This document shows, in pieces, positions 12,177 to 63,835 of a stretch of DNA of 64,000 nt. The stretch lies in contig NZ_LQYA01000047.1 of assembly GCF_001531445.1 (NCBI RefSeq), positions 38,747-102,746 of the forward strand. Direction: 5' to 3'. The first letter of the stretch is position 1, and every line of letters begins with the position of its first letter. The notes under the pieces are model-generated. The model was not told where the DNA came from. It was given only the letters and a program-made list of their open reading frames with translations, and ran no database searches. Source of the stretch: Sporosarcina koreensis. Lineage in GTDB: Bacteria > Bacillota > Bacilli > Bacillales_A > Planococcaceae. Position numbers and translations under genes: made by a program.

Positions 12177-12411
12177 CAGCCTGTTGACAAACGCTCGCAT
12201 CCGTTGTTGAGGCCTACAGGAAGTAGGTCATGCATCCGTTGCCGCAGGACGCGGCGCCCTTAGGATGCCTACCTTATTTGCTCGTCCGCTCATGAACTTT
12301 AGTTCTATTCGCGTCTTCGCTCGACTTCGCGCGGGCTCGCAGGAAGCGAGTCATGCAACCGTCGCCACAGGACGTGGCGCACTTAGGTTGCCTTCCTTGG
12401 CAAGCATTTTC
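12177..12411. repeat. Composite intergenic repeat with two related modules and inverted ends
   Basis: This gene-free stretch is bounded by CAGCCTG (12177-12183) and its inverse CAGGCTG (12405-12411). Inside are two diverged copies of one module, in about 12218-12280 and 12340-12395. Each reads GGAAG..G(G/A)GTCATGCA, then a small stem of the type GCCACAGGACGTGGC, then CTTAGG.TG. No ORF here looks real. It resembles dispersed non-coding repeats of Bacillales chromosomes. The rest of the gap, 12412-12772, holds no gene that I can support; a TATAAT is visible near 12620. Confidence 0.55.
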
Positions 12412-15966: not shown

Positions 15967-15970
15967 AAAT

Positions 15971-16075
15971 ATCTATCGAATCGATGGAATTATCTATTAA
16001 ATCCGGGAAGTTATCTATCGAATCCCGCAAGTTATCTATTGAATCTGCAGTTTTATCTATTGAATAATGAGAAAT
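15971..16075 (+). repeat. 21-bp-period array A (five units)
   Basis: Five direct units of exactly 21 bp start at 15971, 15992, 16013, 16034 and 16055. The conserved core is ATCTAT(C/T)GAATC, followed by about ten variable bases usually ending in AAGTT or GTTTT. The array begins four bases after the exporter stop. The same core and period recur in array B at 42170. Confidence 0.9.
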
Positions 16076-16181
16076 ATTACCGAAAAAGGACTTTGTAACT
16101 AATGAATAAAGAATCGTTTTTGTTGTTGCCTGTGTAAGTGCATTTATGAAAATTTAATAAAATGTATAATAATTCAACTAT

Positions 16182-41678: not shown

Positions 41679-42182
41679 ATGACGGTTACGTATGTGGATT
41701 GGGGCGGACATCAATTGAAGCTCACGTGGATGCATGGTCTAATACCAGAGCGAGAATTCATCACAAGCGTTCACGCATTTTGTTTTCATGAGGAGAAGCT
41801 GCTCATGGTTAATTTGAATGATCGAGGTTGGGATTTTCCAGGGGGGCATATCGAGGATGGCGAAACGGCGGAAGCTTGTATCTGTCGCGAAGTTACGGAG
41901 GAAGCTTATGTGACTGGCAAGTGTACGCTTTTGGGCGCCATTGAAGTGAACCACGAAGAAAATCCGTTATGGAATGAAACAAGCCCCTATCCAAAAGTGG
42001 GCTATCAAGTGTTTTATCGTATGGATATTAAGGAACTCCTGCCGTTTGAAGCGGGTTTTGAATCATCAGAGCGGATACTGATTCGACCGGAAGAGGCAGC
42101 CCTCTACCATAAGGGATGGCAGAAAGGCTTTGATGCGATTATGGATGCGGCGCTACATGTGAATGGGTTATCTATTGAATAA
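41679..42182 (+). CDS. Nudix hydrolase, C-terminus built from a repeat unit
   Basis: The 167-residue protein has a Nudix box GGHIEDGETAEACICREVTEEAY with the REVTEE core. The ATG at 41679 has GAGGGGG upstream, 10 bp after the nucleotidyltransferase stop. The last codons and the stop (LSIE, stop) lie in the first unit of the 21-bp-period array B, so the repeat supplies the end of the protein. Substrate is unknown. Confidence 0.85.
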   Translation: MTVTYVDWGGHQLKLTWMHGLIPEREFITSVHAFCFHEEKLLMVNLNDRGWDFPGGHIEDGETAEACICREVTEEAYVTGKCTLLGAIEVNHEENPLWNETSPYPKVGYQVFYRMDIKELLPFEAGFESSERILIRPEEAALYHKGWQKGFDAIMDAALHVNGLSIE

Positions 42183-42274
42183 TGATAACTATCTATTGAA
42201 TACAGGAAGTTATCTATTGAATATCCGGAGTTATCTATCGAATAAAGAAAGTTATCTATTGAATCTCGAGTTTT
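42170..42274 (+). repeat. 21-bp-period array B (five units)
   Basis: Five direct units of exactly 21 bp start at 42170, 42191, 42212, 42233 and 42254. The core is ATCTAT(T/C)GAAT(A/C) followed by about ten variable bases, ending mostly in GTT. It is the same core as array A, 26 kb away. The first unit contains the stop codon of the Nudix gene. Confidence 0.9.
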
Positions 42275-42324
42275 ATCACCAAAACGGGACCTTTGCTCTA
42301 CGAAAAATTAATGGGGTGGCTTGA

Positions 42325-54192: not shown

Positions 54193-54255
54193 AAGAGTTC
54201 TCGTTCTTTCTAGAAGAGTTCTCATTTATCTCAGAAAAGATCTCAAATCTTTCTC
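54193..54255 (-). repeat. 21-bp-period array E (three units)
   Basis: Three direct units of exactly 21 bp start at 54193, 54214 and 54235. On the plus strand the core is AAGAGTTCTC (A/T-degenerate in the third), so GAGAACTCTT on the minus strand, followed by variable bases. The array abuts and partly overlaps the stop codon of the minus-strand FNR-like gene at 54254-54256. The third unit is more diverged. Confidence 0.7.
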
Positions 54256-61267: not shown

Positions 61268-62146
61268 ATGAAATTGACGAAGAAAATGCAAAGTGCGCTA
61301 GTAATGGAGAAAAAAATAGGGTTGTTTAAATGCCCAATCTGTTCTGCGGAAATGGAAATGGAGGAGCATTCACGCCTCATCTGCCGGAATCTGCACTCGT
61401 TTGATTTGGCCAAAAGCGGTTATGTCAATTTGGCGCCGCAAGCCCATTCGACGAAATATGATAAATCGCTGTTCGAAGCGAGGACTGCCGTCATGGATAG
61501 CGGTTTTTTTGGACCTGTTCTTGACAATATCATCGCCCGTTTAAATACGCATTTGGATGGAATGGAACGTCCTGTTCTCTTGGATGCTGGCTGCGGCGAA
61601 GGAACCCATTTACATAAAGTTCATTCACGAATGCAACCGGGAACTGTCGGCATCGGCATTGATTTGGCGAAGGAGGGAATCGTCGCAGCTTCGAAGACGT
61701 ATCCAGGCATCGTTTGGAGTGTAGCGGATCTCGCTGCCATGCCATTTGCGGATTCGAGTATGGATGCGATCGTAAATATTTTATCACCTGCAAATTATGC
61801 GGAATTCAACCGGCTGTTGAATCCAGGAAGCATATTGGTGAAAATCGTACCGGAAACCGGGTACTTGCAGGAACTGCGGGAAGTCTTCTACGACGGTAAG
61901 CAGCAGAAAGAGGAGGCCGACCCGGTAGCGCGGTTCCGCGAACAGTTCGATGTTGTGGAGTCCGAACGGTTGACGTACTTATTTGAATTGCCTGAAGCGC
62001 TGCTCGCCCCATTGATCCGCATGACGCCGCTGACATGGAATGCGAGTGAGCAGCGAATCGGCGAGGTGCTTGCGATGGGAATGAAGGAGATTACGATTGA
62101 TTTGCGGGTGATAGCGGGTGTTCGACGGGCGGGGGAAATTGGTTGA
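61268..62146 (+). CDS. rlmA: RlmA-type 23S rRNA (guanine-N1) methyltransferase
   Basis: The 292-residue protein has an N-terminal zinc finger (FKCPICSAEM, LICRNLHSFDLAKSGYVNL), which is typical of RlmA, and a SAM domain with VLLDAGCGEGTHLHKV (about residues 100-115), GIGIDLAKEGI, and VNILSPANYAEFNRLLNPG. It would methylate G745 or G748 in helix 35 of 23S rRNA, at the tunnel; RlmA(II) activity is linked to macrolide/tylosin resistance. An ATG with CGGAG upstream is used. An array of 21-bp repeats starts at its stop codon. Confidence 0.87.
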   Translation: MKLTKKMQSALVMEKKIGLFKCPICSAEMEMEEHSRLICRNLHSFDLAKSGYVNLAPQAHSTKYDKSLFEARTAVMDSGFFGPVLDNIIARLNTHLDGMERPVLLDAGCGEGTHLHKVHSRMQPGTVGIGIDLAKEGIVAASKTYPGIVWSVADLAAMPFADSSMDAIVNILSPANYAEFNRLLNPGSILVKIVPETGYLQELREVFYDGKQQKEEADPVARFREQFDVVESERLTYLFELPEALLAPLIRMTPLTWNASEQRIGEVLAMGMKEITIDLRVIAGVRRAGEIG

Positions 62147-62228
62147 GTGGTGATAAACCTGTTTTGAGTGGTGATAACGTAGCCATGAGTGGTGATAACA
62201 TCGTCCTGAGTGGTGATAACCGGGAATT
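62145..62228 (+). repeat. 21-bp-period array C (four units)
   Basis: Four direct units of exactly 21 bp start at 62145, 62166, 62187 and 62208. The core is GAGTGGTGATAAC (13 bases; third to last base varies in the first unit), followed by eight variable bases. It overlaps the last two bases of the rlmA stop and ends 24 bp before a small gene. Confidence 0.9.
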
Positions 62229-63729: not shown

Positions 63730-63813
63730 GATATCGATCAATTGCAAGGGGATATCGATTATTTCCCAAGGTATATCAATCATTTCCCGAGATATATGGT
63801 CATTTTGGGACTT
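63730..63813. repeat. 21-bp-period array D (four units)
   Basis: Units of exactly 21 bp start at 63730, 63751, 63772 and 63793, with core (G/T)ATATCGAT(T/C)ATTTCCC and a more diverged fourth unit. It lies between two convergent terminators rather than at a stop codon. ORFs through it on both strands are repeats translated in frame and are not considered genes. Confidence 0.75.
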
Positions 63814-63835
63814 AAGGTCCACGCGATTCAAACAA

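What the first reader, a model, noticed from the sequence alone, without database searches (positions are those of the whole stretch)
15971..16075. A family of arrays with an exact 21-bp period right after stop codons (array A)
Five units of 21 bp start four bases after the LysE-type stop. Taken with arrays B, C, D and E, the window holds five loci with the same period but with four different core sequences. A and B share ATCTAT(C/T)GAAT. Twenty-one bp is two DNA turns, so units face the same side, and it is also seven codons, but stop codons in the frames exclude coding. The fixed 11-13 base core plus 8-10 variable bases, and the position at gene ends, suggest a 3'-end element (RNA stability, termination, antisense or protein binding). 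I know no named family that fits.
Basis: seen in the sequence. Interest (0 to 1): 0.85.

Follow-up and report, generated by a model that had tools for sequence, protein, structure and literature searches.

The report
Phased 21-bp intergenic arrays with caps
The repeats are real and belong to a published but unexplained class of bacterial DNA repeats with a constant unit size; here they resolve into short, oriented elements (usually four or five 21-base units plus a distinct end unit) that look like docking strips for a DNA-binding protein rather than signals in the RNA of the neighbouring gene.

Summary
Confirmed: the window holds five intergenic arrays with a 21-bp period; no other period from 12 to 39 stands out. 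The 451 kb sampled of this genome (genus Sporosarcina, inferred) hold many more, nearly all at 20 or 21 bp, with several core sequences. The kind is known: constant-size (20-21 or 52 nt), variable-sequence tandem repeats were described by Subirana and Messeguer (PMC8161180), function unknown.
New here: units are a 13-bp core plus about 8 freer bases. Arrays A, B and E end in a conserved cap one period after the last unit. Thirty loci fetched by the cap alone have TATC at exactly -21, -42, -63, -84, -105 in 28, 27, 25, 22, 15, then 2 at -126. Cores change less than spacers at orthologous sites (42 of 260 against 77 of 160). Two loci switched core type between species. Orientation to genes is random (6 sense, 7 antisense); RNA-folding and terminator tests are negative.
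Best reading: a double-stranded-DNA element, a cooperative phased protein-binding strip tolerated at gene ends. A 3'-end RNA element is not supported. No binding protein was identified.

The parts
15969..16073 (+). Array A: five 21-bp units, core TTATCTATYGAAT + 8 freer bases, starting 2 nt after the lysE-type stop
16074..16101 (+). Cap of array A (ATATTACCGAAAAAGGACTTTGTAACTA), in phase with the units; a divergent copy
42168..42272 (+). Array B: five units of the same core between a NUDIX and a GNAT gene; the NUDIX stop TAA (42180-42182) lies in unit 1
42273..42302 (+). Cap of array B (TTATCACCAAAACGGGACCTTTGCTCTACG)
54193..54245 (+). Array C: 2-3 weak units, core AGTTCTCRTTYC read on +, between a Crp-type gene and yebC, both on -; relatives have 3-8 units of this core near yebC
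62144..62219 (-). Array D: four units, core TTATCACCRCTYA read on -, starting at the rlmA-like gene's stop (62144-62146), inside an apparent operon
63731..63793 (+). Array E: three units, core WTATCGRTCAWTT, between convergent genes
63794..63823 (+). Cap of array E (ATATGGTCATTTTGGGACTTAAGGTCCACG), 3' half like that of the A/B caps

Best explanation
Each array is a double-stranded-DNA element. Every unit offers one asymmetric binding core of about 13 bp; the 20- or 21-bp spacing puts successive cores on the same face of the helix, two turns apart, so that a sequence-specific protein can bind cooperatively as a short filament. In the A and E families the strip is usually four or five sites long and ends on a longer cap site whose 3' half both families share. 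Because orientation to genes is random, the bound strip probably acts on the DNA itself (local nucleoid architecture, supercoil or transcription insulation between genes) and is kept in 3' flanks because promoters and coding DNA exclude it. Shown: anatomy, exact phasing, narrow unit count, cap, slower change of core than spacer, random orientation, presence at orthologous sites. Inferred: that a protein binds, that binding is cooperative, and the architectural or insulating role.
For: Spacing is nearly exact although spacers change freely: A family 120 of 121 steps are 21 (20-22 allowed in chaining); exact core pairs with start-to-start distance 14-44: 98 of 99 at 21 or 42 in six genomes, one at 20; GC family 86 of 87 steps under 30 bp are 21. 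Thirty loci fetched by the cap alone (30 of the 55 places; 20 distinct loci): TATC at -21, -42, -63, -84, -105, -126 in 28, 27, 25, 22, 15, 2, and never more than 1 at offsets of 1-3 bases; 22 of 30 have 4 or 5 units in a row. In five same-family orthologous pairs among those loci, units placed by distance from the cap, core differs at 42 of 260 and spacer at 77 of 160 positions, Fisher 4e-12. A and D cores are rare outside arrays in 451 kb: 2 of 38 and 1 of 12 solo, none intergenic. Orientation: 12 convergent, 6 sense, 7 antisense, 2 divergent.
Against: No binding protein was found, and none was searched for. One protein can hardly read cores as different as TTATCTATYGAAT and CTTTGGACGCG, so several are needed. 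Other cores do occur solo by the rule: E 8 of 27 (7 intergenic), p20 15 of 32 (13 intergenic), C 7 of 10 (3 intergenic), p20b 10 of 29 (3 intergenic), GC 4 of 42 (1 intergenic); decayed arrays are a likely but untested reason. Spacing is not perfect: the GATCATAAA core is mostly at 20 in Sporosarcina, with a few steps of 18, 19 or 21, and mostly at 21 in three genomes of another genus. The narrow unit count holds for A and E; GC arrays run to 17 units. The cap clade is small (9 of 220 genomes), so independent events are fewer than rows.
Confidence: 0.5

Rival explanations
1. Selfish or passively kept satellites: units multiply by slippage and spread by unequal or ectopic recombination; the host gains nothing and the core persists because the amplifying machinery needs it.
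For: Sister genomes (93.6% identity over 188 kb of aligned blocks) differ by whole units in 20/21-bp steps, e.g. 2 against 15 GC units at one site. Core type switched at two orthologous loci. Distribution is patchy: caps in 9 of 220 family genomes, A core in 7 of 61 genomes.
Against: Plain slippage would not by itself give a conserved core inside the unit, exact spacing after the spacer has diverged, a count of mostly 4-5, or a distinct cap.
Confidence: 0.27
2. RNA element: the transcribed array acts at mRNA 3' ends (stability, termination, antisense) or as a small-RNA sponge, as the published authors also suggest.
For: B and D lie between closely spaced same-strand genes and are probably transcribed; Subirana and Messeguer report that 52-nt repeats of B. 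coagulans are transcribed.
Against: Orientation random; no structure on either strand; no Rfam match at the arrays at gathering score; terminators equally common with and without arrays; of strong terminator candidates more lie between stop and array than beyond it (12 against 7 convergent, 7 against 2 co-directional), so many arrays would not be transcribed from that gene (inference).
Confidence: 0.13
3. One end of a mobile element or a recombination site: several tandem transposase or recombinase sites plus a terminal site, like Tn7-type ends (recalled).
For: Polarity, small number of sites, conserved terminal unit, occupation of the same site by different arrays, and apparent whole-array replacement.
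Against: No inverted partner, target duplication or associated gene was noticed, but none was searched for systematically; several arrays are inherited at the same sites across species. The empty sites seen at rlmA are too diverged to show a duplication.
Confidence: 0.06
4. Coding heptapeptide repeats.
For: 21 is seven codons; 34 of 34 A arrays have an open frame over their units.
Against: 59 of 143 A units have a stop in the LSIExxx frame. In the frame TAT CTA TYG AAT the most variable core bases inside it (positions 9 and 6) are second codon positions while third positions are 97% or more fixed, the reverse of coding. Sister families have period 20.
Confidence: 0.02

Closest known systems
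Constant-size, variable-sequence noncoding tandem repeats of bacteria, 20-21-nt class (Subirana and Messeguer; PMC8161180, parts 1-4 of 5 read; their J Bacteriol 2020 paper e00229-20 seen only as a reference)
   Same: Repeat of 20-21 nt in many species, several families per genome with the same length and different sequence, constant and variable parts within a repeat, mostly noncoding, few in the B. subtilis group, function unknown; the authors also noted two helical turns and proposed a polymerising protein.
   Different: I found there no core/spacer divergence test, cap, unit-count limit, orientation test or core switching, and no Sporosarcina (0 hits in the main text for 'spacer', 'terminal', 'orientation', 'intergenic', 'Sporosarcina'). 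Families here are shared by several species.
REP/BIME clusters of enterobacteria (recalled)
   Same: Many intergenic copies at gene ends, also inside operons.
   Different: REP units are palindromic hairpins; these units are asymmetric and not structured beyond chance.
Iterons of plasmid origins and ParR/centromere repeats (recalled)
   Same: Asymmetric direct repeats about 20-22 bp apart bound cooperatively: what this most likely works like.
   Different: Dozens of chromosomal copies with several cores. Ten proteins near the window arrays gave no Rep or Par family in Pfam; other neighbours were not annotated.
CRISPR arrays
   Same: Conserved repeat, variable spacer, fixed period, aberrant end unit.
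   Different: Unit is 20-21 bp, spacers about 8 bp and partly kept between orthologs; whole units are gained and lost inside arrays (D and p20 alignments).

Membership tests
20-21-nt constant-size tandem repeats (Subirana and Messeguer) | Repeat size constant at 20-21 nt (+/-1) | tested here: met
20-21-nt constant-size tandem repeats (Subirana and Messeguer) | At least four repeats | tested here: inconclusive
   A and B have 5, D has 4; E has 3 plus cap and C 2-3; their SATFIND program was not run
20-21-nt constant-size tandem repeats (Subirana and Messeguer) | Several families per genome, same length, different sequence | tested here: met
[quoted passage not shown]
   none of the listed arrays of 451 kb inside a predicted gene; 1 of 65 (a GC array) inside a predicted 378-nt ORF
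20-21-nt constant-size tandem repeats (Subirana and Messeguer) | Species-specific families (usual in the paper, with stated exceptions; not defining) | tested here: not met
   A core in 7 genomes of the genus, GATCATAAA core in 11
REP/BIME | Palindromic, hairpin-forming unit | tested here: not met
   z +0.5 to +2.0 on both strands of A, B, D, E
REP/BIME | Linked RAYT (TnpA_REP) transposase | not tested
   no search was made
CRISPR array | New spacers added at a leader end | tested here: not met
   D and two p20 alignments show whole units gained or lost inside the array; GC and C cases are ambiguous as to place
Iteron/partition arrays | Cognate Rep or Par protein binds the repeats | not testable with these tools
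   needs biochemistry
Known Rfam RNA family | Match at or above gathering score | tested here: not met
   only two Bacillaceae-1 RNAs elsewhere in the window

The most novel reading that the evidence does not exclude
The A and E arrays are one modular chromosomal element: about five phased binding sites closed by a cap whose 5' half goes with the repeat family (mostly ACC with A, GTC with E) and whose 3' half is common. Whole cassettes are exchanged at a fixed chromosomal address (A in one, E in the other of two sister genomes), so the address, not the core, is what is conserved. This implies a set of paralogous array-binding proteins sharing one cap or anchor factor: an addressable protein-filament system on bacterial chromosomes.
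Probability: 0.3. Interest if true: 0.8.

Novelty: new variant of a known kind. Interest (0 to 1): 0.56.

Why it matters
Why some bacterial genomes hold many repeats of one fixed size but unrelated sequence was left open by the authors who described them. The anatomy found here (core, free spacer, narrow unit count, cap, random orientation, interchangeable cores) bears on their two ideas, small RNA and nucleoid protein, and favours the second. It also gives a defined bait of about 135 bp with which a binding protein can be sought.

Tried and rejected
Terminator replacement: a crude scan gave terminators at 2 of 20 convergent ends with arrays against 15 of 28 without; a fold-based scan at six settings gave no difference (p 0.08 to 1). 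Rejected. A first version stopped with an error after printing its tables and was also negative.

CRISPR-like spacer replacement was suspected from high spacer divergence between G032 and G033, but alignments showed whole-unit gains and losses misaligning orthologous units. therefore compares some non-orthologous units, counts some loci several times, and picks units by their core.

(52 caps; TATC at -21 to -126 in 48, 46, 43, 38, 25, 2; 12 orthologous pairs, core 145 of 624, spacer 207 of 384, cap 24 of 252) was my first cap-anchored test, but many of its loci had been fetched by the A core, so it is not free of selection. One search repeats it on the 30 cap-fetched loci only; I rely on that.

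A third 'switch' locus flagged (locus 18) is an artefact of a second cap-like site without A or E units, and was dropped. Donor of the replaced array in G032: similar units occur with 0-3 mismatches in 7 of 12 genomes searched, so no single donor could be named.

Wider survey: 75 non-Sporosarcina yebC loci, 20 stretches of other genera of the family (326 kb; 21: 2, 41: 2, 34: 1), 20 stretches of other Bacilli families (359 kb) and E. coli K-12 (200 kb); the last two gave no intergenic array at 20-22. At most 20 kb per genome in the stretches, so absence is weak.

Literature: ten searches. That the cap, unit count and switching are unreported rests on these and only; the J Bacteriol 2020 paper was not held and no supplements were read.

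Full report
CHECK OF THE OBSERVATION. The array is there. Five units fill 15969-16073, 2 nt after the LysE-type stop, and a distinct sixth unit follows in phase. In the 64-kb window only period 21, of all periods 12-39, passes 62% identity over 63 nt; 50 local shuffles give none at 21. Arrays B, D and E are as clear or nearly so; C is weak.

EXTENT. In 450,858 bases of the same genome the raw hits by period (12-60) are 20: 7, 21: 20, 40: 14, 41: 1, 42: 18, 60: 5, and one each at 39 and 48. With a threshold of 0.60, merged, and outside predicted genes: 20: 11, 21: 20, 40-42: 10, 39: 1. Twenty syntenic loci from 20 congeners (392 kb): 21: 21, 20: 1, 40-42: 13, 52: 1. Five named Sporosarcina loci (104 kb): 21: 2, 22: 1, 40-42: 3. 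Seventy-five named loci of other Bacillales (1.44 Mb): 21: 24, 20: 2, a second class at 51-53: 13 (two of these look like coding repeats), and 12 others at 12, 25, 33, 36, 39, 41 and 42 (all). Relatives hold the same period with other cores. Two of the three sampled contigs were chosen because they held A arrays, so densities are not unbiased. The genus is inferred from the window's YebC being 98% identical to that of Sporosarcina thermotolerans.

ANATOMY. Each family has one asymmetric core of about 9-14 bp followed by less constrained bases: for A, positions 2-5, 7-8 and 10-13 carry 1.75-2.0 bits and positions 15-19 at most 0.25 (units there were selected by core). Spacing is almost exact. 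The A count is 4 or 5 in 32 of 34 arrays. A and E arrays end in a cap one period after the last unit, consensus WTATC(ACC or GTC)AWWTCRKGACYTTNNRMCTA. Searching the cap alone in 220 family genomes gave 55 places in 9 genomes, all of this genus, and none for the reversed control. Thirty of the 55 were fetched (20 distinct loci): 29 have an A or E unit within 2 mismatches at -21 (the pattern was learned on such arrays, but these loci were chosen by the cap only); TATC stands at exactly -21, -42, -63, -84, -105 in 28, 27, 25, 22, 15 and at -126 in 2. A shift of +4 scores 4, 2, 2, 0, 1, which is the second TATC of A units with C at position 9; other shifts never exceed 1. The one exception, L302, has an E unit one base out of phase. 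GC-rich arrays often end in CTTTGGACGCGATT, perhaps their own cap; not tested.

SELECTION. Among the cap-fetched loci, five same-family orthologous pairs with units placed by distance from the cap differ at 42 of 260 core and 77 of 160 spacer positions (Fisher 4e-12). The larger sets that are not free of core selection agree: 145 of 624 against 207 of 384 (which includes one A/E switch pair), and for A 67 of 884 against 215 of 544. Sister genomes show whole-unit gains and losses of 20 or 21 bp.

SAME SITE, OTHER CORE. After the rlmA-like gene, 5 of 21 genomes have GGTGATAA arrays, 2 have weaker GTTGATAA arrays, 1 has an unrelated core and 13 have only a short gap before the next gene. Of 36 capped-array loci, 12 have more than one member; at two of them the family differs between genomes: one is A in G000, G004, G036, G033 and G234 and E in G032, whose flanks are 91-94% identical to those of G033 and G234; the other is A in G000 and G234 and E in G032 and G033.

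POSITION AND ORIENTATION. In own-genome gaps of 120 nt or more, arrays sit in 10 of 26 convergent, 20 of 118 co-directional and 5 of 53 divergent gaps; in co-directional gaps 18 of 20 are nearer the stop (Wilcoxon 4e-4), 5 of 20 within 10 nt of it. Of 35 ortholog clusters of capped arrays, 27 had both neighbours called: 12 convergent, 6 sense, 7 antisense, 2 divergent. Convergent gaps have two 3' ends, so this may be no more than avoidance of promoters. Ten proteins near the window arrays fall in unrelated Pfam families or none; neighbours elsewhere were only read by eye. Gene calls come from a simple ORF and codon-usage caller of mine, so some neighbours may be wrong.

WHAT IT IS NOT. Not structured RNA, no Rfam family at gathering score, no difference in terminator frequency. 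Coding is unlikely: 59 of 143 A units have a stop in the LSIExxx frame, and period-20 families exist. Such arrays can still be called as ORFs: my caller made one from an E array, MDTDHFPTFIDHFP....

KNOWN WORK. Subirana and Messeguer (PMC8161180; parts 1-4 of 5 read) report that in 176 Bacillus genomes most tandem repeats are 20-21 nt (781 cases) or 51-53 nt (1886 cases), constant in size and variable in sequence, with several families per genome and short conserved sequences, and suggest a polymerising nucleoid protein or small RNAs. PMC6749651 was read in part 1 of 5, PMC8625621 as passages. The window arrays fall in this kind. The cap, the narrow unit count, the core-over-spacer conservation, the random orientation and the core switching were not found in the texts I could read.

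VERDICT. A known, unexplained kind of DNA, with a new and well-defined variant. The evidence favours a dsDNA protein-binding strip over an RNA signal; the protein and its purpose remain to be found.

Noticed in passing
window 12213-12279 and 12336-12402 (-): Two Rfam Bacillaceae-1 RNAs (RF01690) in tandem, 74 and 71 bits.
   Followed up: no
L094:14011-14920, L099:19557-20221, L101:5474-5824, L110:11852-12263, L111:10751-11157, L131:10794-11187, L164:3325-3538, L167:2123-2631: Second class of intergenic arrays with period 52-53 bp in other Bacillales, several with inverted repeats inside the unit as read by eye; matches the published 52-nt class.
   Followed up: partly
L126:3007-3148 and L168:17128-17215: 25-bp arrays built on the palindrome TGTACCAGGTACA or close variants in Rossellomorea.
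   Followed up: no
G063 contig C1 and G014 contig C1: E-type arrays are one-sided with respect to dnaA: by my reading of the listed places 14 of 15 on one side in G063, eight of them within 150 kb of dnaA, and 9 of 11 in G014, on the other replichore. Terminus assumed opposite dnaA.
   Followed up: partly
G000:C235 and G000:C152, contig starts: Two of three sampled contigs begin inside 21-bp arrays, so the assembly may break at them and arrays may be undercounted.
   Followed up: no
G164, G167, G169 (another genus of the family): The GATCATAAA core has mostly period 20 in Sporosarcina but mostly 21 in these three genomes.
   Followed up: partly
G000:C152:12410-12789: A 39-bp tandem array, best lag identity 0.94, of other make-up.
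   Followed up: no
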